A stretch of DNA of 45,486 nucleotides from Acidobacteriota bacterium (GTDB lineage Bacteria > Acidobacteriota > Blastocatellia > Pyrinomonadales > Pyrinomonadaceae), in the NCBI GenBank assembly GCA_020200135.1, contig JAIVJI010000001.1:1-45486 (forward strand). The letters run 5' to 3'. A program made the position numbers and the translations under genes. Below, one piece after another: positions 13,216 to 36,597 of the stretch. The notes under the pieces were generated by a model. It had not been told where the DNA came from, did no database searches, and was given only the letters and a program-made list of their open reading frames with translations. The stretch's first letter is position 1; each line of letters opens with the position of its first letter.

Positions 13216-13842
13216 ATGAGAGCACAGAAAAAGTCTGCGCCCAACAACGAGCGTCTGGCCGAAATCTACCGCGCGGCCGCGCAGATCATCCTCCGCAAGG
13301 GCTACGACGCGACCTCGGTCAACGACATCGCCAACGCTTTGGGGATGACCAAGGCCGGGCTCTACCACTACATCAACGGCAAGAAGGAGCTGCTCTTCGA
13401 CATCATGAACTTCGGGCTCAGCGAGCTGGACGAGGAGGTGGCCGAGCCGGCCCGGGCCATCGCCGACCCGGCCGCGCGGCTGCGCTTCGCCGTCGCGGCG
13501 CACGCACGCCTCGTCACGCGCGGGCAGGGGGCCATCACGATCCTGGTGGACGAGATCACGGCGCTCACGCCGCCGCAGCAGCGGAAGATAACGCAGCGCA
13601 AGCGCGCCTACTTCGACTTCCTGCGCGGCACGCTCGACGAGCTGAAGGCTGCGGGGCAGCTTCAGGACGTGGACACGACGGCCGCCACCTTCGGCCTGCT
13701 CGGGATGATCAACTGGCTCTCGCGCTGGTTCCGCCACGGCGGCGCTCTCTCCGAGGAGCAGGCGGCCGACCAGCTCGTCCGCATCGCCTTCCACGGCATC
13801 CTGCGCCCCGCGAGATTGAAAGCAGTAGACAGTAGCCAGTAG
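13216..13842 (+). CDS. TetR-family regulator of the fatty-acid block, KstR2-like
   Basis: The 208-residue protein has an N-terminal HTH (LAEIYRAAAQIILRKGYDATSVNDIANALGMTKAGLYHYINGKKELL) and a helical ligand domain ending with GMINWLSRWFRHGGALSEEQAADQLVRIAFHGI, the pattern of KstR2/acyl-CoA-responsive TetR proteins. ATG 13216 is preferred over an in-frame TTG at 13207. It heads the co-directional etf/acyl-CoA dehydrogenase cluster and diverges from fadE, with a strong operator between. Repression relieved by an acyl-CoA ligand is inferred. The last residues (AVDSSQ) and the stop codon are contributed by the heptad element described at 13823-13934. Confidence 0.88.
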   Translation: MRAQKKSAPNNERLAEIYRAAAQIILRKGYDATSVNDIANALGMTKAGLYHYINGKKELLFDIMNFGLSELDEEVAEPARAIADPAARLRFAVAAHARLVTRGQGAITILVDEITALTPPQQRKITQRKRAYFDFLRGTLDELKAAGQLQDVDTTAATFGLLGMINWLSRWFRHGGALSEEQAADQLVRIAFHGILRPARLKAVDSSQ

Positions 13843-13934
13843 GCTCCGCTTCACGGATGTTGACGCTGAGACTCGGGCGGTTCGATATGACGAAGGGGTT
13901 TCTACTGACTACTGTCTACTGACTACTGTCTACT
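13823..13934 (+). repeat. heptad-armed intergenic element, copy A
   Basis: The left arm CAGTAGACAGTAGCCAGTAG (13823-13842) has TAG at 13826, 13833 and 13840, every 7 nt, so there is a stop in each frame. A core of about 59 nt ends in CGAAGG plus GTTT. The right arm (13902-13934) is built of four CTACTGA/CTACTGT heptamers and a final CTACT. The arms are inverted repeats of each other and can pair. The third TAG is the stop codon of the TetR gene, and the etfB ATG comes 5 nt after the right arm with no Shine-Dalgarno between. Confidence 0.85.
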
Positions 13935-13939
13935 TCATC

Positions 13940-14746
13940 ATGAACATCCTCGTCTGTCTCAAGCAGATTCTCGACCCGGAGGTGCCGGCGCGCGACTTCC
14001 GGGTTGACGCGGCGCGGCGCGAGGCCGAGCAGGGGTCGGCCAGCCTCGTGACGAACATCTTCTGCGAGAACGCGCTGGAGACCGCGCTGCAACTGCGCGA
14101 GCGCGCGGGCGGCGCCGCGAAGATAACGGTGCTCTCGTGCGGGCGGCCGTCGGCCGAGGACTCTCTGCGCAAAGCGCTGGCGATGAAGGCCGACGCGGCC
14201 GCGCTCGTCGTCGACGAGTCGGACGCGACGCCCGACCCGCTCGCGGTGGCGCGCGTGCTGGCGGCGGCGATTCAAAAGCTCGGCGCGTTCGACCTCATCA
14301 TGACGGGGCGCGAGGCGGGCGACTGGGGCGCGGGGCAGACGGGCGGACTCCTCGCCGAAGAGTTGGGGCTGCCCTGCGTCTCCTTCGTGGACACGGTCGA
14401 GGTGGCGGGCGGCGTGCTGCGCCTGAAGCGGCAGACCGACGCCGGCTGGGAGTTGATAGAGGCGACGCCGCCCGTCGTCGTCACCGTGACCAACGACGAG
14501 CACAACGTCCCGCGCATCCCGAAGGTGCGCGACGTGATGATGTCCTACCGCCAGCCCCTGACGAAGCTCACGCCCGCCGACCTCGGGCTCTCCGACGAGG
14601 CGCGCGCCGCCGACGGCTACTACGAGGTGGCCGAGCTTTTCATCCCGCAGAAGGAGACGCGCTGCGACTTCGTCGCCGGCGACACGCTCGACGAAAAAGT
14701 GGACGCCTTCGCGCGTCGCATCGTCGAAGTAACACGCGCCCTGTAA
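13940..14746 (+). CDS. etfB: electron transfer flavoprotein beta subunit
   Basis: The 268-residue EtfB subunit pairs with EtfA to carry electrons from acyl-CoA dehydrogenases. Typical features are NILVCLKQILDPEVP at the start, ENALETALQLRER, LIMTGREAGDWGAGQTGGLLAEELGLP and the EtfB signature segment VTNDEHNVPRIPKVRDVM. The loop EAGDWGAGQTG differs from the mammalian AMP-binding form (DDDxNQTGQ). Whether this ETF is of the bifurcating kind cannot be settled by reading. It starts 5 nt after the heptad element and has no Shine-Dalgarno. EtfA follows after a 27-nt gap. Confidence 0.92.
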   Translation: MNILVCLKQILDPEVPARDFRVDAARREAEQGSASLVTNIFCENALETALQLRERAGGAAKITVLSCGRPSAEDSLRKALAMKADAAALVVDESDATPDPLAVARVLAAAIQKLGAFDLIMTGREAGDWGAGQTGGLLAEELGLPCVSFVDTVEVAGGVLRLKRQTDAGWELIEATPPVVVTVTNDEHNVPRIPKVRDVMMSYRQPLTKLTPADLGLSDEARAADGYYEVAELFIPQKETRCDFVAGDTLDEKVDAFARRIVEVTRAL

Positions 14747-14773
14747 TCGTCCGGCCCTGCCGCACTCCGTTTT

Positions 14774-15744
14774 ATGAACGACGTCTGCATCATTCTTTTC
14801 GGCGCGGCCGGGTTCGACAAGGCCGCGCAGGGGTTGGCGGGCGCGGGGCGGCGTCTGGCCGTCGAGCTGGGCGGGAGTCTGCGTGCGGTCGTCGTCGGCG
14901 AGGGCGCGCAGGCTCTGGCTCCGGAGGTCGCGCGCGTCGCGGACGAGGTGACGGTCGCAGACCAGCCGGGGCTGGCCGAGTACCAGCCGGAGACCTGTCT
15001 GACGGCGCTCGCCGAATTGTGCGGGACCCGGCGGCCGCGCGCGGTGCTGCTCGCGGGCGACACTTACAGTCAGGAGACGGCGCCGCGCCTCGCGCACCGT
15101 CTGGGCGGGAGCGCGGCGGGCGACTGCGTCGAGGTGCGCGTCGCGCCGGGCGGGATGGTGCGCGTCTCGCGGCAGGTCTACGGCGGGAAGGCGCAGGCGG
15201 TGCTCGAACTGAAGAGAAGCCCGGCGGTCGTGTGGCTGCGCGCGCGCTCGTTCACGCCCGCGCCGGCGCGCGCCGAAGCCGGCGCGGTGACGCGCGCGGC
15301 TCTGAACGTCCGGCCCGACACGCGCGCGCGCGTCGTCGAGCGCGGGCGCGAGGAGTCGGGCGAGGCGCGTCTGGAAGAGGCGCGCGTCATCGTCTCGGGC
15401 GGGCGCGGCATCGGCGGGCCCGAGCCGTTCGAGTCGGAGCTGAAACCTCTGGCGGAGCTGCTCGGCGCGCAGCTCGCCGCCTCGCGCGCGGCGTGCGACG
15501 CGGGCTGGGTGCCGCCGACGTGGCAGGTCGGCCAGACCGGCAAGAAGGTGACGCCGGAGCTGTACCTCGCCGTCGCCATCACCGGCGCGAGCCAGCACAT
15601 GGCCGGCATCTCCGAGGCCAAAACCATCGCCGCCATCAACACGGACCCCGACGCGCCCATCTTCAAACACTGCCGCTTCGGCATCGTCGAAGACTACCGC
15701 AAGGTCGTCCCGCTGCTGCGCGAGAAGCTGTCCGCGCTGATGAA

Positions 15745-15748
<4 letters not shown>
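14774..15748 (+). CDS. etfA: electron transfer flavoprotein alpha subunit
   Basis: The 324-residue EtfA binds FAD. The N-terminal half is the ETF alpha/beta fold. The C-terminal FAD domain has [49 protein letters not shown] and [22 protein letters not shown], the standard EtfA signature. Its stop overlaps the start of the membrane iron-sulfur protein (ATGA at 15745), which makes that protein the likely electron acceptor from EtfAB to the quinone pool. Confidence 0.94.
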
Positions 15749-17868
<2,120 letters not shown>

Positions 17869-17878
17869 GGTCGCCGTT

Positions 17879-19057
17879 ATGGACTTGAATCTGACACCGG
17901 GCGAGCAGCGTTTCCGCGACGAGTTCCGCGCGTGGCTGAGCGAGAACGTCCCCGGGGAGTGGAAGGGCGCCGGCGCCGGCTCCGAAGACCGCGCGGAGTA
18001 CATCGAGTACCTGCGCGACTGGCAGCGCAAGCTCTACGACGGCGGCTGGGCCGGCATCTCCTGGCCGAAGGAGTTCGGCGGGCGCGGCGCGAGGCTGATG
18101 GAGCAGGCCATCTTTCAGGAGGAGCTGGCGCGCGCGAACGCGCCGCAGCTCGTCGGCACCATCGGGCTGTCGCTCGTCGGCCCGACCATCATCTCGCTCG
18201 GCAACCCGGAGCAGAAGGCGCGCTACCTGCCCAAAATTCTCTCGGGCGAGGAAATCTGGTGCCAGGGCTTTTCGGAGCCCAACGCCGGGAGCGACCTCGC
18301 CGCGCTCGGGACGAAGGCCGTACGTGAGGGCGACGACTTCCGTGTCAACGGCCAGAAGATTTGGACGAGCTTCGCGCAGCTGGCCGACTGGTGCCTGCTG
18401 CTCGTGCGCACGGACTCAGAGGCGCCGAAGCACAAGGGCATCACCTGCCTTCTGGCAGACATGCGCGCCGAGGGCGTGTCGGTGCGGCCGCTCCGCCAGA
18501 TGTCGGGCGACTCGGGCTTCAACGAGGTCTTCTTCTCGAACGTGCGCGTGCCGGCGTCGCGTGTGTTGGGCGAGGTCGACAAGGGCTGGACGACCGCCAT
18601 CACCGCGCTGATGAACGAGCGCGCCAACCTCGGGACGGGGATTCAGGTCGTCTTCAAGCGCCAGCTCGAAGCCCTCGTCGCGCGCTCGCGCACGGTCGAG
18701 CGCGGCGGCCGGCCGGCGAGCGAAGACCCGCTCGTCCGCCAGAAGCTCGCGCAGGCTTACCTCGAACTCGAAATCCTGCGGCTCAACACCAACCGCGCGC
18801 TCACCTCGCTCTCGAAGAGCGGCGTCCCCGGCGCCGAGGGCTCCATCCAGAAGCTCTACTGGAGCGAGATGAACCAGCGCACGCAGCAGTACGCGCAGGA
18901 GATACTCGGCCCCTACGGCCAGCTCAAGGACTTCGACAGGGGCGTGTGGGAGTACGGCTACCTGCGCACGCGCGGCAACACCATCGAGGCGGGCACCAGC
19001 GAAATCCAGCGCAACATCATCGCCGAGCGCGTCCTCGGCCTCCCCAAGAGCTACTGA
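17879..19057 (+). CDS. acyl-CoA dehydrogenase, FadE29/FadE26-like catalytic subunit
   Basis: The 392-residue acyl-CoA dehydrogenase has WCQGFSEPNAGSDLAAL (FAD/substrate loop), QKIWTSFAQLADW, MSGDSGFNEVFFSNVRVP and EAGTSEIQRNIIAERVLGLP. The residue before GTSEIQ is Ala, not the usual catalytic Glu. Instead Glu247 in LMNERANLG occupies the place used as the base by one subunit of actinobacterial two-subunit (ChsE-type) dehydrogenases. The next gene, 12 bp on, encodes a second dehydrogenase-like chain lacking this residue, so a heteromeric enzyme is likely. Electrons would pass to the neighbouring EtfAB. The exact substrate is unknown. Confidence 0.88.
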   Translation: MDLNLTPGEQRFRDEFRAWLSENVPGEWKGAGAGSEDRAEYIEYLRDWQRKLYDGGWAGISWPKEFGGRGARLMEQAIFQEELARANAPQLVGTIGLSLVGPTIISLGNPEQKARYLPKILSGEEIWCQGFSEPNAGSDLAALGTKAVREGDDFRVNGQKIWTSFAQLADWCLLLVRTDSEAPKHKGITCLLADMRAEGVSVRPLRQMSGDSGFNEVFFSNVRVPASRVLGEVDKGWTTAITALMNERANLGTGIQVVFKRQLEALVARSRTVERGGRPASEDPLVRQKLAQAYLELEILRLNTNRALTSLSKSGVPGAEGSIQKLYWSEMNQRTQQYAQEILGPYGQLKDFDRGVWEYGYLRTRGNTIEAGTSEIQRNIIAERVLGLPKSY

Positions 19058-19069
19058 GCACTTCTCATC

Positions 19070-20215
19070 ATGGACTTTGATTTAAGCAAGCCGCAGAAGC
19101 TTTTGAAGGAGTCGGCGCGGGCGCTGCTGGCGCGGGAGTGCGGGCCGGGGCGCGTGCGCGAGCTGATGGAGACCGAGACGGCGCACGACGACGGGCTGTG
19201 GCAGGCGATGGCCGACCAGGGCTGGACGGGGCTCGTCGTGCCGGAGGAGCAGGGCGGCCTCGGGCTGGGGCTGGTCGAGATGGCGGCCGTGGCCGAGGAG
19301 ATGGGGCGCGCCTGTCTGCCGGGCGCGTTCCTCTCGACGCTCTTCGCGGCGGCGCTGGTCGAGCGAGCCGGGAGCGCGGAGCAGCGCGACAGGTATCTCG
19401 AACCAATCGCGGCCGGCGAACTGAGGGCGACCGTCGCGCTGCTCGAAGAGGGGGCGAGCTGGGAGCCGGGCGGCGTGAGGCTCGCGGCGTCGCGCGACGG
19501 CGGCGACTTCACGCTCGCGGGGCGCAAGCTGTTCGTGCCGGACGCTGGCGTCGCCGGCCTCATCGTCTGCGTCGCGCGCGACGGCGACACGCTCGCGCTC
19601 CTGCCGGTCGAGCGAGGGGCCGAAGGGTTGACCGTCACGCCGACGCCCTCGATGGACGCGACGCGCAAGCTCTACGAGGTCGCGTTCGACGGCGTGCGCG
19701 TCGCCGGGCGGGAAGCGCTCGGCGCGGACGGCGACCCCGCCGGGGCGCTCGCCGGCGCGCTCGACGCGGCGACGGCCGTGCTGTGCGCGGAGATGGTCGG
19801 CGGGATGCAGTGGGTGCTGGACGCGTCGGTCGAGTACGCCAAGACGCGCCAGCAGTTCGGCCGCCCCATCGGCTCGTTCCAGGCCGTGCAGCACATGTGC
19901 GCCGACATGCTCCTGTTGACCGAGAGCGCGCGCTCGGCCGCCTACTACGCCGCGTGGGCCCTGACCGAGCGTGACCGGGCGGCCGGGCTCGCCGTCTCGA
20001 TGGCGAAGGCCTACTGCTCGGACGCCTACCGCGAGGTGGCCAACCGCGGCGTGCAGGTTCACGGCGGCATCGGCTTTACGTGGGAGCACGACCTGCAACT
20101 CTATTACAAGCGCGGCAAGTCGTCCGAGACGCTCTTCGGCGACGCGACCTGCCACCGCGAGCGCATCGCCCGCCGCGTCATAGACGGCGGCTCGGCCGGA
20201 GGCCCAAAGCGATGA
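19070..20215 (+). CDS. acyl-CoA dehydrogenase, FadE28-like partner subunit
   Basis: The 381-residue chain has an acyl-CoA dehydrogenase fold but weak catalytic motifs: LEEGASWEPGGV replaces the usual TEPxxGSD loop, and KRGKSSETLFGDATCHRERIA replaces YEGTSEIQ. YAKTRQQFGRPIGSFQAVQH and NRGVQVHGGIGFTWEHDLQLYYKR are well conserved. This mixture is typical of the FadE28/FadE27 type partner in two-subunit acyl-CoA dehydrogenases. It is flanked by its presumed partner (12 bp upstream) and overlaps the SDR start by ATGA. A pairing with the upstream chain is inference. Confidence 0.87.
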   Translation: MDFDLSKPQKLLKESARALLARECGPGRVRELMETETAHDDGLWQAMADQGWTGLVVPEEQGGLGLGLVEMAAVAEEMGRACLPGAFLSTLFAAALVERAGSAEQRDRYLEPIAAGELRATVALLEEGASWEPGGVRLAASRDGGDFTLAGRKLFVPDAGVAGLIVCVARDGDTLALLPVERGAEGLTVTPTPSMDATRKLYEVAFDGVRVAGREALGADGDPAGALAGALDAATAVLCAEMVGGMQWVLDASVEYAKTRQQFGRPIGSFQAVQHMCADMLLLTESARSAAYYAAWALTERDRAAGLAVSMAKAYCSDAYREVANRGVQVHGGIGFTWEHDLQLYYKRGKSSETLFGDATCHRERIARRVIDGGSAGGPKR

Positions 20216-20988
20216 CGGCACACGTCAAGGAATTGTTCGACCTGACGGGACGCGCGGCGATTGTCACGGGCGGCTCAAGGGGCTTGGGTAAGGAGATGGC
20301 CGAGGGGCTGGCCGAGGCCGGCGCGTCGCTGATGCTCTGCGCGCGGCGCGAGGAGTGGCTCGCGCCCACGCTCGAAGAGTTCCGTGGGCGCGGCTTCGGC
20401 GCCGAGGGGATGCTCTGCGACGTGGCCGACCCCGCGCAGGTGCGGGCGGTGGTGGACAGGACGGTCGAGGTGTTTGGTAAAGTTGACGTCCTCGTCAACA
20501 ACGCCGGCGTCTCGTGGGGCGAGCGCCCCGAGAGCATGCCGCTCGACAGGTGGCAGAAGGTCATCGACGTGAACCTGACCGGCGCGTTCCTCTTCGCGCA
20601 GGCCGCCGGGCGCGAGATGCTGAAGCGGGAGTACGGGCGCATCATCAACGTCTCTTCGGTCTCGGGCCTTCAGTCCTCGGCCGACGGGCCGCACTACGTC
20701 GGCTACGCGGCGTCGAAGGCCGGACTGTTCGGCCTGACGCGCGAGCTGGCGGCGACGTGGGGGCGCAGCGGGATACGCGTCAACGCCATCGCGCCCGGCT
20801 TCTTCCACTCGCGCCTCACCGAGGGCATCATCGAGCGCGCGGAGGCGTCGATCAAGGCGCGCTCGCCGCTCCCGCGCGTCGGCCGGGAGGGCGAGCTGAA
20901 GGGCGTCGCGGTCTTCCTCGCCTCCGACGCGTCGAACTACATCACGGGGCAGACCATCGTCGTGGACGGCGGGCGCACCATCGTTTAA
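20212..20988 (+). CDS. SDR-family oxidoreductase of the fatty-acid block
   Basis: The 258-residue classical SDR has [16 protein letters not shown], the catalytic Ser in [13 protein letters not shown] for the Tyr/Lys pair, [11 protein letters not shown] and [11 protein letters not shown]. An Arg in CARREE after the second strand suggests NADP(H). The start ATG 20212 overlaps the upstream stop (ATGA). Within this cluster it probably oxidises or reduces a hydroxy- or ketoacyl-CoA, by analogy with SDRs in other acyl-CoA operons; the substrate is not shown by sequence. Confidence 0.88.
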
Positions 20989-20998
20989 GGAGGGGATG

Positions 20999-22699
<1,701 letters not shown>

Positions 22700-27069: not shown

Positions 27070-27537
27070 CTATGGATGCCGTCCAAAGTAAAAAGTCTCG
27101 TTAGACGGGTCAAGCGCAAAGCGCATTCGCTCAAGACAACCATGTAAGCCTAAAAAGGATATGGGTAAGAAATTTGCAGGTAGGTTCTGACCGGTATCAG
27201 GGACGAAAGCAGTTGCCTGAAAGTCTAGACCATTACCCTCTTGAGCATGAAGAATAAGATTTGCGCGGTGAACGCGCCCCCGTAACGGCACCCCCTGAAT
27301 GCGGATAGTTGTCGCTTCAAGAGCATCCTCCGGGTCAAGCCAAAGGCGCTCTGCCAAATCAGGCGAACAGACTAAGTATGGCGCACCCGTATCAAGTACG
27401 GCCGCCTCTTGCTCACCTTCTATCTCTATCTCGATCATGACCCGCGGCGTTATGTCATCCCTTCCGGGTATAGGGGTGTAAGAATAGCGCAATGCGCCTG
27501 TTGCGAAAGAGTCTCCGTTGGTGAAGTTCAGGAGCAT
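27070..27537 (-). CDS. retropepsin-like (clan AA) aspartic protease
   Basis: The 155-residue protein has a single retropepsin-like domain. The catalytic triad is DTGA (Asp49-Thr-Gly-Ala, in AAVLDTGAPYLVC), and the second hydrophobic-Gly element is in LPISFLGLHG near residue 130. Retropepsins act as dimers, so one domain is enough. There is no signal peptide or membrane segment. It is directly coupled to the DUF5678 gene (stop TAG then ATG with no gap, at 27540/27537). Base use is AT-rich compared with the flanks. The target protein is unknown; the upstream operon partners are candidates. Confidence 0.78.
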   Translation of the reverse strand: MLLNFTNGDSFATGALRYSYTPIPGRDDITPRVMIEIEIEGEQEAAVLDTGAPYLVCSPDLAERLWLDPEDALEATTIRIQGVPLRGRVHRANLILHAQEGNGLDFQATAFVPDTGQNLPANFLPISFLGLHGCLERMRFALDPSNETFYFGRHP

Positions 27538-28320: not shown

Positions 28321-28963
28321 CTGTATCCCGCCTCTTCACGAACGCATCTACTGAAGGGGATAATCTTTCTAATTCTGTGTCAAGGTTAAAGCCTTTCAAA
28401 TTCGTCGCAGTTGTAGTCGTGATAAAGAGGTACGTCGCGCCCTTAGGGGTAGTCTGTATCGTTGCCGTTGCGATTTCTTGCTCCTTAGGAAGTAGAAGTG
28501 AAATCCCCATAACTAAAGAGCCAGCCAGTACCTTTTCAGAAGTAACTAGTGGAAACGGCAAGGTGATGGCGGGCGTGAAGGACTCATCGAATATATATGC
28601 CGCGTGCAAATGCGCCTCTATCATGTCGCCCTTGAAAAATCTACTAAGCCATTCGGCGCAGTCATACACATTAGGTAGCCGCTTGTTCTCCGACTCAACC
28701 TCCATTGTAGAGTTATGAAACCTAAGTTCTACCGAGCCCTCACCCCCCTTATTCAGCCTGACCGTTAAGTGAGCGTGGGGCTTAAGAGGCTCAGCGCTGA
28801 TACCGAACGAGAGCGTCACTTCCGTGTTACCATCCTCGTCAACCGTGAATTCGTCAGGGTTTAGCTCTCTGGCAGTCTCCAAAAAAGCAGCTTCATCTAG
28901 GGCTTCACGCGCGAACTTAGAATTCAATTCCAACATATCGCACTGGAAGTCATCCATGCTCAT
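28298..28963 (-). CDS. unknown protein, first gene of AT-rich operon
   Basis: The 221-residue product is taken from ATG 28963, which has TTAAGG 6 nt upstream. A TTG at 28996 would extend it by 11 residues. I do not recognise the family. Visible features are an acidic N-terminal half (ARELNPDEFTVDEDGNTEVTLSF), alternating beta-strand-like segments (HLTVRLNKGGEGSVELRFHNSTMEVES), and a hydrophobic stretch AITLPFPLVTSEKVLAGSLVMGISLLL that might be a buried strand-helix or a weak membrane segment. It overlaps the DUF5678 gene by 23 bp. Codon use is AT-richer than that of the surrounding genes. Confidence 0.65.
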   Translation of the reverse strand: MSMDDFQCDMLELNSKFAREALDEAAFLETARELNPDEFTVDEDGNTEVTLSFGISAEPLKPHAHLTVRLNKGGEGSVELRFHNSTMEVESENKRLPNVYDCAEWLSRFFKGDMIEAHLHAAYIFDESFTPAITLPFPLVTSEKVLAGSLVMGISLLLPKEQEIATATIQTTPKGATYLFITTTTATNLKGFNLDTELERLSPSVDAFVKRRDTDDAANNQ

Positions 28964-29026
28964 TGGTAGCCTTAAGTCCTTTCGCCGGGCAAACAAATAG
29001 CGAACGGGTACACGCCCGCGAGGATT

Positions 29027-29032
29027 ATTATA
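29027..29032 (-). promoter_or_regulatory. putative -10 box of the island operon
   Basis: On the minus strand this reads TATAAT, a perfect -10 box, about 60 bp before the ATG of the first island gene. The bases 17 bp upstream do not make a good -35, so the call is tentative. Confidence 0.35.
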
Positions 29033-29130
29033 TAAGAGGCGGGAAGGATACAGGAAGATGCCGCGTGCGTCACGAAAATTCGACGTGGTGGGTAAATTGT
29101 GGGCTAAACTGGCTTTGCGAGCGAGCCAGA

Positions 29131-29180
29131 CTTTTGTAACAGCGGGACTACTTTTGAAACAGAACGGCCTTTTGTAAAAA
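29131..29180 (+). repeat. three iterated CTTTTG(T/A)AA units
   Basis: CTTTTGTAACAG (29131), CTTTTGAAACAG (29151) and CTTTTGTAAAAA (29169) recur with 20- and 18-bp steps, roughly two helical turns, between the island operon promoter and the right direct repeat. The spacing would suit protein binding on one DNA face or iterons of a mobile element. Confidence 0.5.
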
Positions 29181-29191
29181 AGCCATTTCAG

Positions 29192-29206
29192 ATTTGAAAT
29201 TCAGAG
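29192..29206. repeat. right imperfect direct repeat of AT-rich island
   Basis: ATTTGAAATTCAGAG matches the left copy at 26911-26926 except for one missing base. The thiolase gene begins 23 nt further on, so the repeat marks the return to high-GC operon sequence. Confidence 0.6.
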
Positions 29207-29228
29207 CAGACGGCGGGGAAGAGTTTTT

Positions 29229-30413
29229 ATGAGGGAAGCAGTTATCGTGGCCGGCGTGCGGACGGCGGTCGGGAAGGCGCCGCGCGGGAGCCTGCGCACG
29301 GTGAGGCCGGACGACATGGCGGCGGCCGTCATCGAGGATTTGCTGCGGCGCGTGCCGGGGCTCCCGCCCGAAACGATTGACGACGTGGTCATGGGCTGCG
29401 CCACGCCCGAGGGCGAGTCGGGGACGAACGTCGCGCGCATCGCCGCGCTGAGGGCGGGGCTCCCGCACGAGGTGCCGGCGGTGACGGTCAACCGCTTCTG
29501 CTCGTCGGGGTCGCAGACCATCGCGCAGGCGGCCGCCTCCATCATGTCGGGGATGGCCGAGTGCGTCATCGCGGGCGGGACGGAGTCGATGTCGATGCTG
29601 CGCGGCAACACCAAGTTCCGCCCCAACCCGCACCTCGTCGAGCACCGCCCCGGCGTCTACCTCTCGATGGGGCTGACGGCCGAGAACGTCTCGCGCCAGT
29701 ACAACGTCACGCGCGAGGAGGCGGACGCCTTCTCCTACCGCAGCCACCGCCGCGCGCTCGCCGCGATTGAGGAAGGTAAGTTGAAGGACGACGGCATCGT
29801 CCCGCTCGAAGTCGAAGTCCGCGAGGTCGGAGAGGGCGGCGCGGTCAGAGAGAGGCGCCTCACGTTCGACACGGACGAGGGGCCGCGCCCCGACACGACG
29901 CCCGAGGGGCTCGCCAAGCTGCGCCCCGTCTTCCACGTCAAGGGGACGGTGACGGCCGGCAACTCCAGCCAGACCTCGGACGGCGCGGCGGCCGTCGTCG
30001 TGATGTCGCGCGAGCGGGCCGAGGGGCTGGGGCTGAGGCCGCTGGCGCGCTTCGTCTCGTACGCGGTGGGCGGCGTGCCGCCCGAGATCATGGGGATGGG
30101 GCCGGTGGTGGCCGTGCCGAAGGCGCTGAAGCTCGCGGGGCTCAAGCTCGAAGACATCGACCTCGTCGAGCTGAACGAGGCGTTCGCCTGCCAGGCCATC
30201 GCGGTGATGCGCGAGCTGGGGATGGACGACGAGCGCGTGAACGTCAACGGCGGCGCGGTCGCGCTCGGCCACCCGCTCGGCGCGTCGGGCGCGAAGCTGA
30301 CCGTGCAGCTTCTGGGGGAGATGCGGCGGCGCCGGTCGCGCTACGGCCTGGTGACGATGTGCGTCGGCGGCGGGCAGGGCGCGGCGACCGTCTTCGAGAA
30401 CCTTCAGACCTGA
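29229..30413 (+). CDS. fadA: acetyl-CoA acyltransferase (thiolase)
   Basis: The 394-residue thiolase performs the last beta-oxidation step, cleaving 3-ketoacyl-CoA with CoA. Active-site Cys91 is in [15 protein letters not shown]; the second half has [30 protein letters not shown] with the catalytic His, and [14 protein letters not shown] with the second Cys. It is the natural partner of the FadN-type enzyme encoded at 23593. The AT-rich island separates it from the other catabolic genes, which would otherwise run on without a break. Confidence 0.93.
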
Positions 30414-30448
30414 GCGCGACGGGGCGCCCGAGAGGAGTCGTGGGACGG

Positions 30449-31672
30449 ATGAGCGTTGAAGACCCTTACTTCGGCTTTCAGGTCTCGGGGCGCGCGAAGC
30501 ACATCTACCGGCGGCTCCGCGAGTTCATGGCGGAGCACGTCTACCCGAACGAGCGGAAGTTTCACGAGCAGGTGGAGGCGGGCGAGCGCTGGCAGCCCGT
30601 CCCCCTGGTGGAGGAGTTGAAGGCGAAGGCGCGCGCCGAAGGGCTCTGGAACCTCTTCCTGCCCGAGAGCGAGTACGGCGCCGGGCTGACGAACCTTGAG
30701 TACGCGCCGATGGCCGAAGTGATGGGGCGCTCGGCGCACTTCGCGCCCGAGGTCTTCAACTGCTCCGCGCCGGACACGGGCAACATGGAGGTGCTCGTCC
30801 GCTACGGCTCCCCGGAGCAGAGGGAGCGCTGGCTGCGTCCGCTGCTCGCGGGCGAGATTCGCTCGTGCTTCGCGATGACCGAGCCCGAGGTGGCCTCGTC
30901 CGACGCGACCAACATCCGGGCGAGCATCACACGCGACGGCGGCGAGTACGTCCTGAACGGCCGCAAGTGGTGGACGAGCGGCGCGGGCGACCCCCGGTGC
31001 AAGGTCGCCATCTTCATGGGCAAGACCGACCCCGAAGCGCCGCCGCACCGACAGCAGTCGATGATCCTCATCCCGATGGACGCCGAGGGCGTGCGCGTCC
31101 GCAGGATGCTCACGGTCTACGGCTACGACCACGCGCCGCACGGCCACGCCGAGGTGACGTTCGAGAACGTGCGCGTGCCCGCGTCGAACATCCTTTTGGG
31201 CGAGGGGCGCGGCTTCGAGATAGCGCAGGGGCGTCTGGGGCCGGGGCGGATACACCACTGCATGCGCCTCATCGGGATGGCCGAGCGCGCGCTCGAAGCG
31301 ATGTGCCGGCGCGCCGCCTCGCGCGTGGCCTTCGGCCGGCCGCTGGCGACGCAGGGGACGATTCGCGCCGACATCGCGCGCTCGCGGATAGAGATAGAGC
31401 AGGCGCGCCTGCTGACTTTGAAGGCGGCGCTGATGATGGACACGGTCGGGAACAAGGCGGCGCGCGGGGAGATCGCGATGATAAAAGTGGTGGCGCCCAG
31501 CCTGGCGCTGCGCGTCATCGACCGCGCGGTGCAGGCGCACGGCGGCGCGGGCGTCTCGGAGGACTTCCCGCTCGCCTCGATGTGGGCCAACGCGCGCACG
31601 CTCCGCCTCGCCGACGGCCCCGACGAAGTCCACCTCGAATCGCTCGCGCGGATGGAGCTGAAGGGGTACTAG
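30449..31672 (+). CDS. acyl-CoA dehydrogenase, ACAD10/11-like
   Basis: The 407-residue dehydrogenase has the ACAD10/ACAD11 features [57 protein letters not shown] and [22 protein letters not shown]. The usual catalytic Glu (YEGT) is replaced by Asp (LADGPDEVH). Known members (human ACAD11, Pseudomonas LvaC) act on phosphorylated 4-hydroxyacyl-CoA made by a linked kinase. Such a kinase is encoded 1.5 kb downstream at 33165. ATG 30449 is the likely start. MaoC, DinB and thioesterase genes follow closely. Confidence 0.9.
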
Positions 31673-31676
31673 CCGC

Positions 31677-32132
31677 ATGACTGAGATCGAAGGCGTGGAG
31701 AAGCTCGGGCTTCTGGTCGGGCAGGAGGCGGGCTTAAGCGAGTGGGTCGGGGTGTCGCAGGAGCGCATCCACAGTTTCGCCGAGGCGACCGAAGACCGCC
31801 AGTGGATTCACACCGACCCGGAGCGCGCGGCGCGCGAGTCGCCCTTCCGTGTGACCGTCGCGCACGGCTTCCTGACGCTCTCGCTCTTGAGCGAGATGGG
31901 GCGGACGGCCGTCGCGGTCGGCGGGGTGAGGATGGGAATCAACTACGGGCTGAACCGCGTGCGCTTCGTCGCGCCCGTCCCCTCGGGGTCGCGCGTGCGC
32001 GGGCGCTTCAAGCTCGCGGCGCTCGAAGAGATTAAGGGCGGCGTGCAGGCGACGTGGGACGTGACGGTCGAGCGCGAGGGCGGCGGCAAGCCTTGCTGTA
32101 CGGCCGTGTGGCTGGTGCGCTACTACGTCTGA
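31677..32132 (+). CDS. MaoC-family dehydratase/hydratase
   Basis: The 151-residue hotdog protein has the hydratase motif (ERIHSFAEATEDRQWIHTDPERA, Asp and His in the D-x4-H order) followed by FRVTVAHGFLTLSLLSEM, the NodN/MaoC pattern. It starts 4 nt after the ACAD11-like gene stop. It could hydrate the enoyl-CoA released by the upstream dehydrogenase. It is a second hydratase in the block, besides the MaoC at 26538 and the crotonase domain of the FadN-type protein. Confidence 0.85.
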   Translation: MTEIEGVEKLGLLVGQEAGLSEWVGVSQERIHSFAEATEDRQWIHTDPERAARESPFRVTVAHGFLTLSLLSEMGRTAVAVGGVRMGINYGLNRVRFVAPVPSGSRVRGRFKLAALEEIKGGVQATWDVTVEREGGGKPCCTAVWLVRYYV

Positions 32133-32179
32133 AGCGCGGCCGAGTTCGGGCGCGGGCCGGAGGGTTTGCGGGAGGTGGC

Positions 32180-32656
32180 ATGGGCGAAGTCGCACGGATA
32201 GGCAGTCAGCTCAAGCGGGCGATGGAGGGCGGGGCGTGGCACGGGCCGGCGCTGCTCGAACTCCTCGCCGACGTGTCGGCCGAGCGCGCCGCCGCAAGGC
32301 CGGTTCCCGGCGCGCACGGCATCTGGGAGATAGTGCTGCACATCGCGGCGTGGCAGAATTTTGCGGCCGGCGCGGTCGAAGGAGGGGCGATGCCGGTTGA
32401 CCTCGCGGACGGAGCGAACTGGCCGCCGGTCGCGGACGCGTCCCGTGAGGCGTGGCGCGGGACGGTCGCGGAGGTCGGCGCGGCCGGCAAGCGCCTGCGC
32501 GACGCGCTTCGCAGGTTCTCGGACGAAGACCTTGAGAGGACAGTCCCCGGCCGCGAGTACAACTTCTACTTCCTGCTTCACGGCGTCGCCCAGCACGGAC
32601 TCTACCACGCGGGGCAGGTCGCCCTGCTGAAGAAGGCCCCGGCGGAAAACTTATGA
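32180..32656 (+). CDS. DinB-family protein
   Basis: The 158-residue protein is of DinB/YfiT type: a four-helix bundle with metal-binding His at EIVLHIAAWQNF and in the C-terminal LLHGVAQHGLYHAGQVALLKK (the H-xx-Y-H-x-x-Q motif). Family members include thiol-dependent (mycothiol/bacillithiol) transferases and uncharacterised proteins. ATG 32180 follows GGGAGG. The stop overlaps the thioesterase start by ATGA, so it is an internal operon gene, but its part in acyl-CoA metabolism is unknown. Confidence 0.82.
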   Translation: MGEVARIGSQLKRAMEGGAWHGPALLELLADVSAERAAARPVPGAHGIWEIVLHIAAWQNFAAGAVEGGAMPVDLADGANWPPVADASREAWRGTVAEVGAAGKRLRDALRRFSDEDLERTVPGREYNFYFLLHGVAQHGLYHAGQVALLKKAPAENL

Positions 32657-33168
32657 GCGGCACTTCCGAAGACGCGTCGCGCACGCGCACCTTCACTTGG
32701 GACGACCCGCGCGCGCTGGCCGAGGCGGCGCGCGGCCTGTCGGGGATAGAGTTTCTGCGCAAGGTCGCCTCGGGCGAGCTGCCGCGCCCGCCCATCAGCG
32801 CGCTGATGAACTTCGGGCTGGCGGAGCTCGCGGAGGGGCGCGCGGTCTTCACGGTCGAGCCGGCCGAGTACCACTACAACCCCATCGGCGTCGTCCACGG
32901 CGGGCTGGCGGCGACGCTGCTCGACTCGGCGATGGGGTGCGCGGTGCATTCGACCCTGCCGGCGGGCGCCGGCTACACGACGCTCGAGGTGAAGGTCAAT
33001 TTCGTGCGGCCGCTGACGGCCGAGACCGGCGTGGTGCGCTGCGAGGCCGAGGTCATACACGTCGGCGGCCGCACCGCGACCGCCGAGGGCAAGGTGCTCG
33101 ACGCCGCGGGGAAGCTCTACGCGCACGCCACCACGACCTGCATCATCTTTCGCACGGAACGCGGATGA
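32653..33168 (+). CDS. PaaI-family hotdog thioesterase (second copy)
   Basis: The 171-residue protein has YHYNPIGVVHGGLAATLLDSAMGCAVHSTLPAG and TTLEVKVNFVRPLTAETG. This core is almost the same as that of the thioesterase at 26026, including HGGLAATLLDSA. The N-terminal GLSGIEFLRKVASGELPRPPI also matches LSGLEYMRQLLSGE in the paralogue. It overlaps the genes on both sides by 4 bp (ATGA at 32653 and 33165). It probably clears aberrant acyl-CoAs. It arose by duplication of the other gene or of a common ancestor. Confidence 0.86.
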   Translation: MSGTSEDASRTRTFTWDDPRALAEAARGLSGIEFLRKVASGELPRPPISALMNFGLAELAEGRAVFTVEPAEYHYNPIGVVHGGLAATLLDSAMGCAVHSTLPAGAGYTTLEVKVNFVRPLTAETGVVRCEAEVIHVGGRTATAEGKVLDAAGKLYAHATTTCIIFRTERG

Positions 33169-34271
33169 GCGACACGCCCGACAGACAGACCCCCGGCGCG
33201 ACGGACACGCGCCCCGTGCGCCCGAGCGAGCAGCTCGACTGGGAGTCGCTCGCGGCGTACCTGCGCGCGCTCATGCCGGGGATGGCCGACGTGTCGTTCG
33301 ACGCGGACGCGCCGCTCGAAGTCGAGCAGTTCCCGGGCGGCCACTCGAACCTGACGTACCTTCTGCGGTTCGGGCGCGAAGAGTTCGTGATGCGCCGGCC
33401 GCCCTTCGGCCCCGTCGCGCCGAAGGCGCACGACATGGCGCGCGAGTTCCGCATACTGCGCTCGGTGCACCCGGTCTTCCCGCTCGCGCCCAGGCCGCTG
33501 CTGCTCTGCGAGGACGCGCAGGTCGTCGGCTCGGTCTTCTACCTGATGGAGCGCCGGCGCGGGCTGGTGGTGCGCGGCGAGGAGCCGCCCCAGCTCGAAG
33601 GCCGCCCCCGCGAGAGGCGGCGTGCGGGCGCGGCGGTGGTGGACGCGCTCGCCGAACTGCACGCGGTGGACGTGGGCGCGCACGGGCTCGTCTCGCTGGG
33701 GAAGCCCGCCGGGTTCGTCGAGCGGCAGGTGCGCGGCTGGGCGGAGCGCTGGCACAGGTCGCGGACGGGCGAGCTGCCCGAGATGGACGCGCTCGCCGCG
33801 TGGCTCGCGGAGCGTCTGCCGCCAGACCCCGCGCGCCCGGCGCTCGTCCACGGCGACTACAAGCTCGACAACGTGATGCTCGACGCCGGGGACGTGCGGC
33901 GCGTCGTCGGCGTCTTTGACTGGGAGATGAGCGCGGTCGGCGACCCGCTCGTAGACCTCGGCATCCTGCTCGGCTACTGGGTCCACACCGCGGCGGCGGC
34001 GCGGCGCGACGACAGCGTGGCTACGGTCACAGACCGCGAGGGCTGGCTCACGCGCGAAGAGATTCTCGAACGCTACGGCTCGCGGACGGGGTTCGACCTG
34101 AAGGGCGTCGGCTTCTACGAGGTCTTCGCCGTCTTCAAGCTCGCCGTCGTGCTGCAACAAATCTTCTTCCGCTACCAGCGCGGCCAGACCGACGACCCGC
34201 GCTTCGCCGCGCTCGGCGAGCGCGTCTCGTGGCTGGCGCACGTCGCCGCGCAACTCGCGGAAAAACAGTAG
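33165..34271 (+). CDS. ACAD10/11-type acyl-CoA kinase (APH-fold), LvaA-like
   Basis: The 368-residue phosphotransferase has the aminoglycoside-phosphotransferase fold: EQFPGGHSNLTYLL (nucleotide loop), EEFVMRRPPFGPVAPKAHDMAREFRIL (Lys/Arg and substrate segment typical of ACAD10/11 N-domains), LVHGDYKLDNVMLD (catalytic Asp and Asn) and VFDWEMSAVGDPLVDLGILLGYW (metal Asp). In human ACAD10/11 this domain is fused to the dehydrogenase and in Pseudomonas it is LvaA; both phosphorylate the 4-hydroxy group of 4-hydroxyacyl-CoA. Here it is a separate gene in the operon of the ACAD11-like dehydrogenase. Its stop codon is the first TAG of the heptad element at 34266. Confidence 0.85.
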   Translation: MSDTPDRQTPGATDTRPVRPSEQLDWESLAAYLRALMPGMADVSFDADAPLEVEQFPGGHSNLTYLLRFGREEFVMRRPPFGPVAPKAHDMAREFRILRSVHPVFPLAPRPLLLCEDAQVVGSVFYLMERRRGLVVRGEEPPQLEGRPRERRRAGAAVVDALAELHAVDVGAHGLVSLGKPAGFVERQVRGWAERWHRSRTGELPEMDALAAWLAERLPPDPARPALVHGDYKLDNVMLDAGDVRRVVGVFDWEMSAVGDPLVDLGILLGYWVHTAAAARRDDSVATVTDREGWLTREEILERYGSRTGFDLKGVGFYEVFAVFKLAVVLQQIFFRYQRGQTDDPRFAALGERVSWLAHVAAQLAEKQ

Positions 34272-34371
34272 ACAGTAGACAGTAGCGCTGCGCGTTACGG
34301 TCGCTGACGCTGTCTATCATAACGATTCAGTTGCCGATGGTTTTTCTACTGACTACTGACTACTGTCTACT
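34266..34371 (+). repeat. heptad-armed intergenic element, copy B
   Basis: The left arm CAGTAGACAGTAGACAGTAG (34266-34285) has TAG at 34269, 34276 and 34283, one per frame. The core of about 60 nt contains TTACGGTCGCTGACGCTG and ends in CGATGG plus TTTTT. The right arm (34346-34371) has three CTACTGA/CTACTGT heptamers and a final CTACT. The first TAG stops the kinase gene. The alcohol dehydrogenase ATG (34377) comes 5 nt after the right arm, as at copy A, again without a Shine-Dalgarno. Confidence 0.85.
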
Positions 34372-34376
34372 TACCC

Positions 34377-35480
34377 ATGAACATCAACGCCGCGATACTC
34401 TGGGAGCAGGGCGCGCCGCTGTCGGTCGAGGCGGCGGAGCTGGGGGCGCCGCGCGCGGGCGAGGTGCTGGTCGAGTTGAAGGCGGCGGGCGTCTGCCACA
34501 GCGACCTGCACCCGGCGCGCGGCGACTGGCCGACGCGCACCCCGCTCGTGCTCGGGCACGAGGGCGCCGGCGTCGTGCGCGAGGTCGGCGCGGGCGTCCG
34601 GGGCGTGCGCGAGGGCGACCACGTCGTCTTCTGCTGGGCGCCGCCGTGCGGCGCGTGCCCGCCGTGCCTCGAAGGCCGGCCCGTGCTGTGCGACCGACTG
34701 GAGCGGACGACCTACCGCAACCGCCTGCCGGCGGGCGACACGCTGCTGACCGCGCGCGGCCAAAGGCTGGCGCACTACAACGGCACCGCCTGCTTCGCGG
34801 ACTTCGCGGTCGTGGCGGAGGAGGGCGTCATCAACGTGCCGGCGGACGTGCCGTTCGAGGCGCTGGCGACGCTGGGGTGCGCGGTGGTGACGGGCGTCGG
34901 CGCCGTCATGAACGCGGCGCGCCCCGAGGCGGGCGCTTCGGTTGTGGTCATCGGGACGGGCGGCGTCGGCCTCAACGTCGTGCAGGGCGCGCGGCTCGCG
35001 GGCTGCGCCCGCATCGTCGCGCTCGACACGCGCGCCGAGCCTCTGCGCCTGGCGCGCGAGTTCGGCGCGACCGACGCGGTCGAAGCGTCGGGGCAGAATG
35101 TGACCGAGCGGGTGAGGGAGTTGACCGACGGGCGCGGCGCCGATTACGTCTTCGACACGGTGGGCGCGCCCGCGACGCTCGCGCAGGCGCTCTCGTACGC
35201 GCGCAAGGGCGGGACGGTAGTGGTGACGGGGCTCTCGCGGCTCGACGCGCTCGCCTCGTTCCCGCTATTCTCCTTCGTCATGCAGGAGAAGCGCCTCGTC
35301 GGCTCGCTCTACGGCTCGGGCCGGCCGGCGCGTGACGTGCACCGCCTCGTCGAGCTTTACCGCGAGGGCCGGCTCAAGCTCGCAGAACTCTCCGCGCGCA
35401 CCTACGCGCTCGCCGAGGTCAACGACGCGCTCGCCGCGCTCTCCGGCGGCGAAGGCGCGCGCGGCATCATCCGCTGGTAG
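34377..35480 (+). CDS. zinc-dependent alcohol dehydrogenase (class III-like)
   Basis: The 367-residue medium-chain dehydrogenase has CHSDLH and LGHEGAG for the catalytic zinc, the structural-zinc cluster CGACPPCLEGRPVLC (C-x2-C-x2-C-x7-C), LGCAVVTGVGAVMNAA, and the NAD-binding GTGGVGLNVVQGARLAG. Asp in IVALDTRAE suggests NAD. It resembles the class III/NDMA-type branch. It ends the plus-strand catabolic run and could oxidise alcohols or hydroxyacids entering the pathway; this is inference. It is convergent with the next gene, which is 9 bp away. Confidence 0.88.
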   Translation: MNINAAILWEQGAPLSVEAAELGAPRAGEVLVELKAAGVCHSDLHPARGDWPTRTPLVLGHEGAGVVREVGAGVRGVREGDHVVFCWAPPCGACPPCLEGRPVLCDRLERTTYRNRLPAGDTLLTARGQRLAHYNGTACFADFAVVAEEGVINVPADVPFEALATLGCAVVTGVGAVMNAARPEAGASVVVIGTGGVGLNVVQGARLAGCARIVALDTRAEPLRLAREFGATDAVEASGQNVTERVRELTDGRGADYVFDTVGAPATLAQALSYARKGGTVVVTGLSRLDALASFPLFSFVMQEKRLVGSLYGSGRPARDVHRLVELYREGRLKLAELSARTYALAEVNDALAALSGGEGARGIIRW

Positions 35481-35489
35481 AAGAAAAGA

Positions 35490-36470
35490 TTAACTGACGA
35501 GCAACACTTTGCCGCTGCGGCCGGGGCGTTCGGAGTGCGCGGCGGCGGCGAGGACTTCGGAGAGCGGGTACTCGGCCTCGACGGGCGGGACTATCTCGCG
35601 GGTCGCCATCGAGCGCAGCATCTCGGCGACCGTCGCCTGCTGGCGCTCGGGCGGCGCGGAGCGCATCCAGTCGCCGAGCCAGAAGCCGCGCAGCGTCGTC
35701 GTCGCGAAGATCATCCGCCCGCCGTCGACGGGCGTCGGCCGCCCCGAGAGCAGCCCGTAGACGAGCATCACGCCGCCGCGCCCGAGCGCGCTCAACACGG
35801 CCGCGCCGGTCTCGCCGCCGACCGCGTCGATGGCCTTCCGCACGCCTTCCTGGCCCGTAATCTCGCGCACGCGCGCGGCGATGTCCTCCCCGTCCGTCGA
35901 GATGCAGGCGTCGGCGCCGAGCGCCAGAAGCTCCTCGGCCTGCTCGCGCCGGCGCACGACGTTGATGGTCTTGAAGCCCCGCTGCCGCGCTATCTGCAAG
36001 ACGACGCGGCCCAGGGTCGAGCCGGCCGCCGTCTGCAAGAGCCACTCGCCGGGTTTGAGTGCCAGCTCCTCGACGCACATGATCCAGGCCGTCAGCGGGT
36101 TGACGACGAACTGCGCGGCGGTCTGGTCGCTGACGCCCTCGGGGACGGGGATGAGCTGCGCGGCCGGGGCGACGACGTACTCGGCCCACGTCCCCGCCAC
36201 GCCGAGGGGTATCACGCGCTGGCCGGCGCGCAGGTGTCCGACGCCCTCGCCGACTTCCGCCACCTCGCCCATGCCTTCGAGCCCCGGAGTGGCCGGCGGC
36301 ACGGGCAGCGCGCCGTAGAGCCCGCGCACCGTGAGCAGGTCGGACGGGTTGATGGGGCGCGCGCGCATCCTCACCAGAACCTGGCCGGCGCCCGCCTCGG
36401 GGCGCGGCACGTCCTCCACGCGCAGAACCTCCCGCGGGTCGCCGAACTCGTGAAACCTGACGCTTTGCAT
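35490..36470 (-). CDS. MDR oxidoreductase, 2-enoyl thioester reductase-like
   Basis: The 326-residue protein has the MECR/ETR-like layout: FGDPREVLRVEDVPRPEAG, RPINPSDLLTVRGLYG, TPGLEGMGEVAEVG, LQTAAGSTLGRVVLQIARQRGFKTINVVRR (the NADP-binding loop) and DAVGGETGAAVLSALGRGGVMLVYG. Zinc ligands are absent. Reduction of a trans-2-enoyl thioester with NADPH is the best guess, but quinone oxidoreductase-type members look similar. AAAGGAG lies well before the ATG, just after the heptad element at 36488. It is downstream of the 4HBT thioesterase on the same strand. Confidence 0.82.
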   Translation of the reverse strand: MQSVRFHEFGDPREVLRVEDVPRPEAGAGQVLVRMRARPINPSDLLTVRGLYGALPVPPATPGLEGMGEVAEVGEGVGHLRAGQRVIPLGVAGTWAEYVVAPAAQLIPVPEGVSDQTAAQFVVNPLTAWIMCVEELALKPGEWLLQTAAGSTLGRVVLQIARQRGFKTINVVRRREQAEELLALGADACISTDGEDIAARVREITGQEGVRKAIDAVGGETGAAVLSALGRGGVMLVYGLLSGRPTPVDGGRMIFATTTLRGFWLGDWMRSAPPERQQATVAEMLRSMATREIVPPVEAEYPLSEVLAAAAHSERPGRSGKVLLVS

Positions 36471-36487
36471 GGTTGTCTCCTTTGAAA

Positions 36488-36597
36488 AGTAGACAGTAGA
36501 TAGTAGTCAGTAGTCAGTAGAAAAACCTTCGCAGCCAGGCCGCCGGCCTGTCAAGATTAACGTCCGCCGAGCAGAGCCTACTGACTACTGTCTACTG
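36488..36597 (-). repeat. heptad-armed intergenic element, copy C
   Basis: Read on the minus strand, the left arm CAGTAGACAGTAGTCAGTAG (36597-36578) has TAG in all three frames, and the core of about 57 nt (36577-36521) begins GCTCTGCTCGGCGGACGTT and ends CGAAGG plus TTTTT. The right arm (36520-36488) has CTACTGA/CTACTAT/CTACTGT heptamers. The core aligns with copy A (GCTCCGCT...CGGATGTT). The third TAG stops the upstream thioesterase. The downstream gene starts 17 nt further on and has AGGAG. Confidence 0.85.

What the first reader, a model, noticed from the sequence alone, without database searches (positions are those of the whole stretch)
13823..36597. Family of three heptad-armed intergenic elements carrying three-frame stops
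Three elements (13823-13934, 34266-34371, 36488-36597) have the same build: a left arm of TAGNCAG heptamers, a core of about 57-60 nt that aligns between copies (ending CGAAGG or CGATGG plus a T-run), and a right arm of CTACTGN heptamers that is the inverted repeat of the left. Because 7 is 1 modulo 3, three TAGs spaced 7 nt apart give a stop in each frame (copy A: 13826, 13833, 13840). Each copy lies between two co-directional genes and is oriented the same way relative to them. This looks like an undescribed short mobile or selected intergenic element, adapted to end translation whatever the frame.
Basis: seen in the sequence. Interest (0 to 1): 0.85.

Follow-up and report, generated by a model that had tools for sequence, protein, structure and literature searches.

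The report
Heptad-armed mobile elements at gene ends
Scattered between the genes of this bacterium, which belongs to a genus of Acidobacteriota, are copies (77 read here) of a short DNA element whose two ends are arrays of a seven-letter word carrying a stop codon; 33 of the 79 gene ends lying at these copies take their stop codon from the element, and it likely spreads as a small mobile element.

Summary
Confirmed, and larger than seen. The three loci are F1-core elements between inverted CAGTAGN arms. The genome holds 570 exact CAGTAGNCAGTAG matches (reversed-letter control 0), roughly 136 elements. I read 77, from 81 clusters; none has plain outward arms. Of 79 facing gene ends within 100 nt, 78 lie at -34 to +15 nt and 33 stop at a TAG of the element; five more ends lie farther off. 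Core type follows gene layout: unstructured, directional F1 between co-directional genes (55 of 60; strand 45:10), terminator-like F2 between convergent genes (10 of 11; Fisher 4.8e-10). CAGTAGN is one of 21 heptad flavours in samples of five genomes; period 7 gives 32 inverted pairs in 397 kb, seven other periods 0 or 1. Orthologous sites are empty, same-flavour or different-flavour. I read these as non-autonomous mobile elements tolerated at gene 3' ends. No Y1 transposase was found in three element-rich congeners. Heptamer repeats and GTAG-REPs at stop codons are published; new here are inverted arms in many flavours, layout-matched cores and turnover at the same sites.

The parts
13823..13842 (+). 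Copy A left arm, CAGTAGN x3; third TAG (13840-13842) is the stop of the TetR-type gene
13843..13901 (+). Copy A core, F1 type, 59 nt
13902..13935 (+). Copy A right arm, CTACTGN array, ending 4 nt before the next start codon
34266..34285 (+). Copy B left arm; first TAG (34269-34271) is the stop of the APH-family gene
34286..34345 (+). Copy B core, F1 type, 60 nt
34346..34372 (+). Copy B right arm
36578..36597 (-). Copy C upstream arm (element reads on the minus strand); third TAG (36580-36578) is the stop of the thioesterase-like gene
36521..36577 (-). Copy C core, F1 type, 57 nt
36487..36520 (-). Copy C downstream arm
13216..13842 (+). Upstream gene of A, TetR-type regulator
   Evidence: Pfam TetR_N and TetR_C_24 on the longer ORF 13207-13839; gene call
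13940..14746 (+). Downstream gene of A, electron transfer flavoprotein domain
33165..34271 (+). Upstream gene of B, APH-fold phosphotransferase family
   Evidence: Pfam APH on the longer ORF 32697-34268; gene call
34377..35480 (+). Downstream gene of B, zinc-type dehydrogenase
36578..36997 (-). Upstream gene of C, thioesterase (4HBT) superfamily
35490..36470 (-). Downstream gene of C, zinc-type dehydrogenase

Best explanation
The three loci are copies of one dispersed family of about 110-nt intergenic elements (an F1 core between inverted CAGTAGN heptad arms) that likely spreads as a non-autonomous mobile element and is likely tolerated only at the 3' ends of genes, where a TAG of the element is now the stop codon of 33 of the 79 facing gene ends. 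Shown: dispersed copies with homologous cores, inward arm polarity, placement at stop codons, use of the first, second and third arm TAG, empty orthologous sites with a native stop in one congener, and core type matched to gene layout. Inferred: that copies arrive by insertion; that purifying selection removes copies elsewhere; that the three-frame inward stops widen the landing zone by making loss of the native stop harmless; that F2 cores end transcription from both sides in convergent gaps and so survive only there, while unstructured F1 cores let transcription pass between co-directional genes. CAGTAGN is one of several heptad flavours built on the same plan. What moves the elements is unknown; a Y1 (RAYT/IS200) transposase was not found in three congeners.
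For: 570 exact 13-mers, control 0. 77 of 81 clusters have the plain inward-arm form, the other 4 are one-armed or mixed, none is plain outward. F1 found again at five places outside the training set, each with heptad arms. Facing gene ends at -34..+15 nt in 78 of 79 within 100 nt; five more lie 191-1717 nt away. Empty sites in G002 at B and C with native stops, filled in G000 and G003; further empty/filled pairs. Nested copies (by eye). CCGTRAA flavour amplified in this genus (96 to 587 matches in G000-G003, 20 in G004, at most 4 in the other 35 of 40 genomes). F1 co-directional 55/60, F2 convergent 10/11, F1 strand 45:10. F2 cores fold (13 of 14 z<-3 against 50 mononucleotide shuffles), F1 cores do not (1 of 61). 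The same address for CAGTAG elements in 80 named loci: 88 of 99 facing gene ends within -40..+30 nt, 53 of 60 outside Acidobacteriota (approximate gene finder).
Against: No target-site duplication and no clean boundary was seen; at B the spacer appears replaced rather than split. No mover found; the two Y1 genes of G000 have no heptad array beside them. Occupied sites recur between species more than free landing predicts (G003 armed at 6 of 6 own-armed against 6 of 30 own-unarmed sites, p=0.0005; G002 3 of 7 against 4 of 30, p=0.11), which fits site function or hot spots as well. The inward-stop bias is weak by flavour, 8:3, and weaker in other genomes (inward 3-frame arms 24 of 32 in G001, 5 of 16 in G002, 16 of 38 in G003, 11 of 30 in G026, against outward 3, 2, 2 and 7). 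Stop-side anchoring was not significant in the sample of all flavours (stop side closer in 12 of 20).
Confidence: 0.55

Rival explanations
1. The elements are host-serving gene punctuation: selection keeps an armed spacer at certain gene ends (translation stop, hairpin, terminator or mRNA 3' protection), and heptad arms turn over in place.
For: Occupied sites are shared between species while flavours differ; core type fits gene layout; F2 cores look like two-way terminators; whole window elements fold better than all 200 shuffles (z -5.7, -3.5, -4.2); CCGTRAA arms keep pairing through their variable base (42 of 43, shuffled mean 0.65).
Against: The variable base of CAGTAGN arms is not complementary beyond chance in the inner register (0.405 against 0.401; the best other register, F1-type shifted by one unit, is borderline: 0.431 against 0.371, reached by 48 of 1000 shuffles). 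F1 cores are unstructured, and sites B and C do without an element in G002. The eight genes scanned in the window show no common theme.
Confidence: 0.22
2. The arms are ordinary long simple-sequence repeats grown by polymerase slippage, copied to the other side by hairpin-templated repair; no mobility.
For: Heptamer SSRs are over-represented in many genomes and slippage has been proposed (passages of PMC4692102 and PMC4679880). Adjacent N bases within an arm are identical slightly more often than chance (145 of 353, shuffled mean 126, maximum 152).
Against: Slippage does not explain 61 F1 cores recognised across the genome, inward polarity, near-exclusive period 7, or whole elements at sites that are short spacers in a congener. 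In CAGTAGN arms the seventh base varies between neighbouring units (units were picked by the other six bases).
Confidence: 0.1
3. They are GTAG-tagged REPs/REPINs moved by a RAYT-type Y1 transposase.
For: GTAG in each arm unit and a small covarying stem GC-TCC-GC at the start of F1 (12 of 42 sequences changed on both sides at one pair); GTAG-REPs also sit close to ORF 3' ends and often supply the TAG stop (PMC3733652 section 15).
Against: No Y1_Tnp match in the drafts of G001, G002, G003, all element-rich; the two in G000 are 148- and 151-aa frames without a heptad array beside them; REPs are 20-40 bp palindromes (abstract of PMC3733652), not heptad arrays round a 58-nt core.
Confidence: 0.08

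Closest known systems
TAACTGA direct repeats of Beggiatoaceae, Cyanobacteria, Bacteroidetes (MacGregor 2015, PMC4679880; abstract, passages, sections 9 and 24 read)
   Same: Intergenic heptamers, stops in all three frames, some overlapping the upstream stop codon, mostly within a few nucleotides of the downstream start codon
   Different: In the main genome direct repeats of 2-6 copies with one inverted case; no core and no second arm; proposed as a binding site of a post-transcriptional regulator
GGGAATC / GGGGA(T/C)T heptamers of Xanthomonas and Nostoc (Rehm 2015, PMC4692102; passages read)
   Same: Heptamers between aligned ORFs, close to or overlapping stop codons, 70 and 75 convergent inverted pairs in two species, mostly between the same genes in both
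   Different: Read as G-quadruplexes; CAGTAGN and CCGTRAA have no G-tracts, so that reading cannot cover the class; no core families in the passages read
GTAG-tagged REPs and REPINs (Di Nocera 2013, PMC3733652; abstract and section 15 read. Bertels and Rainey 2011, PMC3116915; search listing only)
   Same: Dispersed, palindromic, mostly between co-directional and convergent ORFs, close to 3' ends, TAG stop supplied to ORFs
   Different: 20-40 bp hairpins linked to RAYT genes; here heptad arrays around a long core and no Y1 match in three congeners
MITEs (recalled)
   Same: Short, non-autonomous, inverted ends, many copies, empty sites
   Different: No target-site duplication or parent transposon found; ends are variable-number heptad arrays
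STRR heptamers of heterocystous cyanobacteria and small dispersed repeats (recalled; not read)
   Same: Heptamer tandem arrays in intergenic DNA
   Different: Could not be compared in detail

Membership tests
Intergenic heptameric repeats | Tandem units of 7 nt, enriched over other unit lengths, in intergenic DNA | tested here: met
   Inverted pairs in 397 kb: period 7 = 32, periods 5,6,8,9,10,11,13 = 1,0,0,1,0,0,0; 32 of 35 elements (window included) fall in gene gaps
Intergenic heptameric repeats | Stops in all frames, used by the upstream gene | tested here: met
   33 of 79 facing gene ends stop at a TAG of the element
GTAG-REP / REPIN | GTAG followed directly by a stable hairpin | tested here: inconclusive
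   Only a 3-pair stem with some covariation; F1 cores unstructured as a whole
GTAG-REP / REPIN | A RAYT (Y1_Tnp) gene in the genome | tested here: not met
   0 matches in G001-G003; 2 short ones in G000; drafts 90-94% complete
MITE | Presence/absence at orthologous sites | tested here: met
MITE | Target-site duplication | tested here: not met
   None visible by eye in the compared sites; flanks diverged 10-20%, so not final
MITE | Parent transposon with the same ends | not tested
   Long elements with heptad ends and a gene inside were not searched for
Intrinsic terminator (F2 cores only) | GC-rich hairpin followed by a T-run | tested here: met
   13 of 14 F2 cores z<-3, with A- or T-runs at the foot in many; the simple scan tool did not list the one F2 site in the stretch given to it

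The most novel reading that the evidence does not exclude
A cross-phylum class of heptad-armed elements works as movable gene punctuation: interchangeable 7-nt arms end translation in all frames from both sides, and the cargo core is matched to gene layout (two-way terminator where genes meet, open directional core where they follow), spread by a mechanism other than Y1 transposases, with flavours replacing one another at the same gene ends.
Probability: 0.3. Interest if true: 0.8.

Novelty: new variant of a known kind. Interest (0 to 1): 0.6.

Why it matters
Heptamer repeats have been reported piecemeal in unrelated bacteria with unrelated explanations (translation regulator site, G-quadruplex, slippage). 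Here many heptad words share one plan (inverted arms, core, stop-codon address) in one genus, and CAGTAG arms recur in several phyla. That makes an open question, why seven and why at gene ends, testable in culturable carriers such as Mesorhizobium. It also shows a mobile-looking DNA that supplies the stop codons of dozens of host genes in one genome.

Tried and rejected
Y1 transposase as mover: two genes in G000 with no heptad array beside them, none found in three congeners. F1 as a structured RNA: RNAalifold finds 3 pairs only, core z mean +0.30, no Rfam hit at gathering threshold in six sources. CAGTAGN arms as a pairing-selected hairpin: variable bases not clearly complementary, although CCGTRAA arms are. 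Promoter in F1: none by the scan of window 30000-45000; terminator-like sites there number 4 against a shuffle mean of 7.1, but two of the four lie in copy C. nhmmer with the F1 core gave no hits at E<=1; the covariance model did. Loss of Shine-Dalgarno motifs downstream: 16 of 47 with motif against 137 of 306, p=0.21. The first gene finder picked antisense ORFs and was replaced.

Limits of the counts: most of the 77 copies were fetched through a pattern from the F1 3' boundary, so the F1:F2 ratio is biased; layout given type is not chosen by it. Of 81 clusters 4 were left out as not plain. One search dropped E12, E40, E49, E57, E65 (no gene on one side or gap >700). One search counts only gene ends within -60..+100; five more facing ends (E32, E40, E49, E57, E65) lie farther. 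The 397-kb sample is three contigs chosen for length from the list, so not blind. Alignment A2 took 42 of the 44 F1 cores of 50-62 nt listed (L077 and L084 left out by eye) out of 61 F1 copies. Model R1 was run on 22 of the 80 named loci. The strict site detector missed arms visible by eye at one G002 site (L158:14409). Besides period 8, inverted pairs of period 6 occur in G002 (2), G003 (1), G001 (1) and of period 13 in G001 (1). One search found five papers holding one of the sequence strings; by their titles none concerns bacterial repeats, and I did not open them.
Full report
Observation. The three elements are present as described. Each has a left arm of CAGTAGN units, a 57-60 nt core and an inverted right arm of CTACTGN units. 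In all three the gene that reads into the element ends at a TAG of the arm: the third for the TetR-type gene at A, the first for the APH-family gene at B, the third for the thioesterase-like gene at C.

Genome-wide. CAGTAGNCAGTAG occurs 280 times forward and 290 reverse in the 5.27-Mb draft, with none for the reversed-letter control. The 77 elements read in full hold 4.19 such 13-mers each, so about 136 elements are expected. In 554 kb fetched round matches (window included), 81 clusters of three or more units were found; 77 have the plain form, arms pointing inward, 4 are one-armed or mixed, none is plain outward. Same-genus drafts G001-G003 hold 118, 268 and 371 matches; in the 36 other family and class genomes numbers run from 0 to 1371.

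Two core families. F1 (61 of 77) is about 58 nt, loosely conserved, directional, and not structured (mean z +0.30, 1 of 61 below -3). F2 (14 of 77) is a GC-rich hairpin, many copies with an A-run before and a T-run after, like a two-way intrinsic terminator (mean z -5.2, 13 of 14 below -3). F1 lies between co-directional genes in 55 of 60 cases (1 convergent, 4 divergent), F2 between convergent genes in 10 of 11; Fisher p=4.8e-10; five elements had no usable context. In co-directional gaps the F1 core runs with the genes 45 times and against them 10 times (p=2e-6). A covariance model of F1 finds five copies outside its training set, at 35.5 to 79.8 bits, in 442 kb of this genome, and weaker copies in G001, G002 and G003, but none in the G026, G037, G023 and G027 samples or in 22 named loci of other groups. 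So the F1 core appears confined to the genus, while the arms are not.

Address. Of 79 gene ends that face one of the 77 elements within -60..+100 nt, 78 lie between -34 and +15 nt; five further facing ends are 191 to 1717 nt away. In 38 of the 79 the stop codon lies in the element, wholly or in part; in 33 it is a TAG of the element: first arm unit 18, second 4, third 8, fourth or fifth 2, and one at the very edge. All three frames are therefore caught in practice. Stop codons outside the element are mostly TGA (27 of 41), as TGA leads in background genes.

A wider class. A search blind to sequence, for two period-p runs whose units are reverse complements, gives in 397 kb of this genome 32 pairs at period 7 and 1, 0, 0, 1, 0, 0, 0 at periods 5, 6, 8, 9, 10, 11, 13; a few pairs of period 8 (2, 2, 5, 3) appear in G001, G002, G003 and G026. 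Over samples of five genomes there are 21 heptad flavours, CAGTAGN (34 of 93 elements) and CCGTRAA (17 of 93) leading. In this genome arms read inward stop all three frames in 53 of 70 cases, outward in 3 of 70; arrays of shuffled heptads do so in 47%. In G001, G002, G003 and G026 the inward figures are 24 of 32, 5 of 16, 16 of 38 and 11 of 30, outward 3, 2, 2 and 7. Counted by flavour the bias is 8 inward-only to 3 outward-only, with 3 both and 7 neither. An adaptation to stop translation is thus suggestive, not shown.

Arms are not all alike. In 11 CCGTRAA elements the variable purine of one arm pairs with that of the other in 42 of 43 cases (shuffled mean 0.65, maximum 0.91 in 1000). In CAGTAGN elements the variable base pairs no more often than chance in the inner register (0.405 against 0.401); the strongest other register is borderline (48 of 1000 shuffles, F1-type shifted by one unit). 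CCGTRAA elements are true palindromes; CAGTAGN arms are two arrays whose seventh base drifts.

Orthologous sites. The window is syntenic with G002 and G003, the long stretches mostly at 79-88% identity. At B and C, G002 has a short spacer and its own stop codon, G000 and G003 have elements; G003 arms are CAGTAGG/CAGATGG and its core at B runs the other way. Elsewhere one site carries CAGTAGN in G000 and GATGAGT arms in G002 and G003; another carries CAGTAGN, TTTCAGT and GGTRAAT in the three species. At a further site G002 ends CAA TAA, G003 CAG TAG of an element and G000 ACG TGA of another flavour at the same codons. With a strict detector G003 is armed at 6 of 6 sites armed in G000 against 6 of 30 unarmed ones (p=0.0005); G002 at 3 of 7 against 4 of 30 (p=0.11). 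Elements nested in elements occur (by eye). Occupied gene ends tend to persist while the occupant changes.

Beyond the genus. One of its records, titled Acidobacteria bacterium gp4, is letter for letter the G001 contig over 8000 bases, which places the window's genus in Acidobacteriota group 4. In the 80 loci, 88 of 99 facing gene ends lie within -40..+30 nt of the element (Acidobacteriota 35 of 39, Alphaproteobacteria 28 of 29, Chloroflexi 13 of 13, Planctomycetes 4 of 4, other 8 of 14, with a gene finder trained on the window's genome and groups assigned by me from titles, so approximate).

Mechanism. Best supported: non-autonomous mobile elements tolerated at gene 3' ends, whose inward three-frame stops let them replace a native stop without harm; F2 copies survive only where a two-way terminator does no damage. 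The insertion step, the selective filter and the benefit of the stops are inferred. Against it: no target-site duplication, no mover, and more site sharing than free landing predicts. A Y1/RAYT mover is excluded for G001-G003 as far as 90-94% complete drafts allow.

Known and new. Heptamer repeats with three-frame stops at ORF ends (PMC4679880), inverted heptamer pairs at stop codons (PMC4692102) and GTAG-REPs that supply TAG stops (PMC3733652, section 15) are in print. I found no paper on this family or on inverted arms of many flavours with layout-matched cores, which cover open-licence papers only.

Noticed in passing
L191:14598-14695, L173:1252-1335 and others: CCGTRAA palindromes, a flavour nearly confined to this genus (277 matches of AACCGTRAACCGTRA in G000, 587 in G001, at most 20 in any of the 36 genomes outside the genus).
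   Followed up: partly
L199:8130-8261 (G026): An element of one heptad flavour nested between the arms of another.
   Followed up: no
L158:17230-17254: A 24-nt remnant in G000 with left units and one right unit and no core, where G002 and G003 carry full elements of other flavours (by eye).
   Followed up: no
G001, G002, G003, G026 samples: A few inverted pairs of period 8 (2, 2, 5, 3), absent from the G000 sample.
   Followed up: no
L120, L121 (G000:C104): Two Y1 transposase frames 14 kb apart on one contig; in L120 other transposase-like frames lie beside it (by eye).
   Followed up: partly
G003:C6:77022-77102 and similar: Near-perfect palindromes of CAGTAGG/CAGATGG heptads with very short cores.
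   Followed up: no
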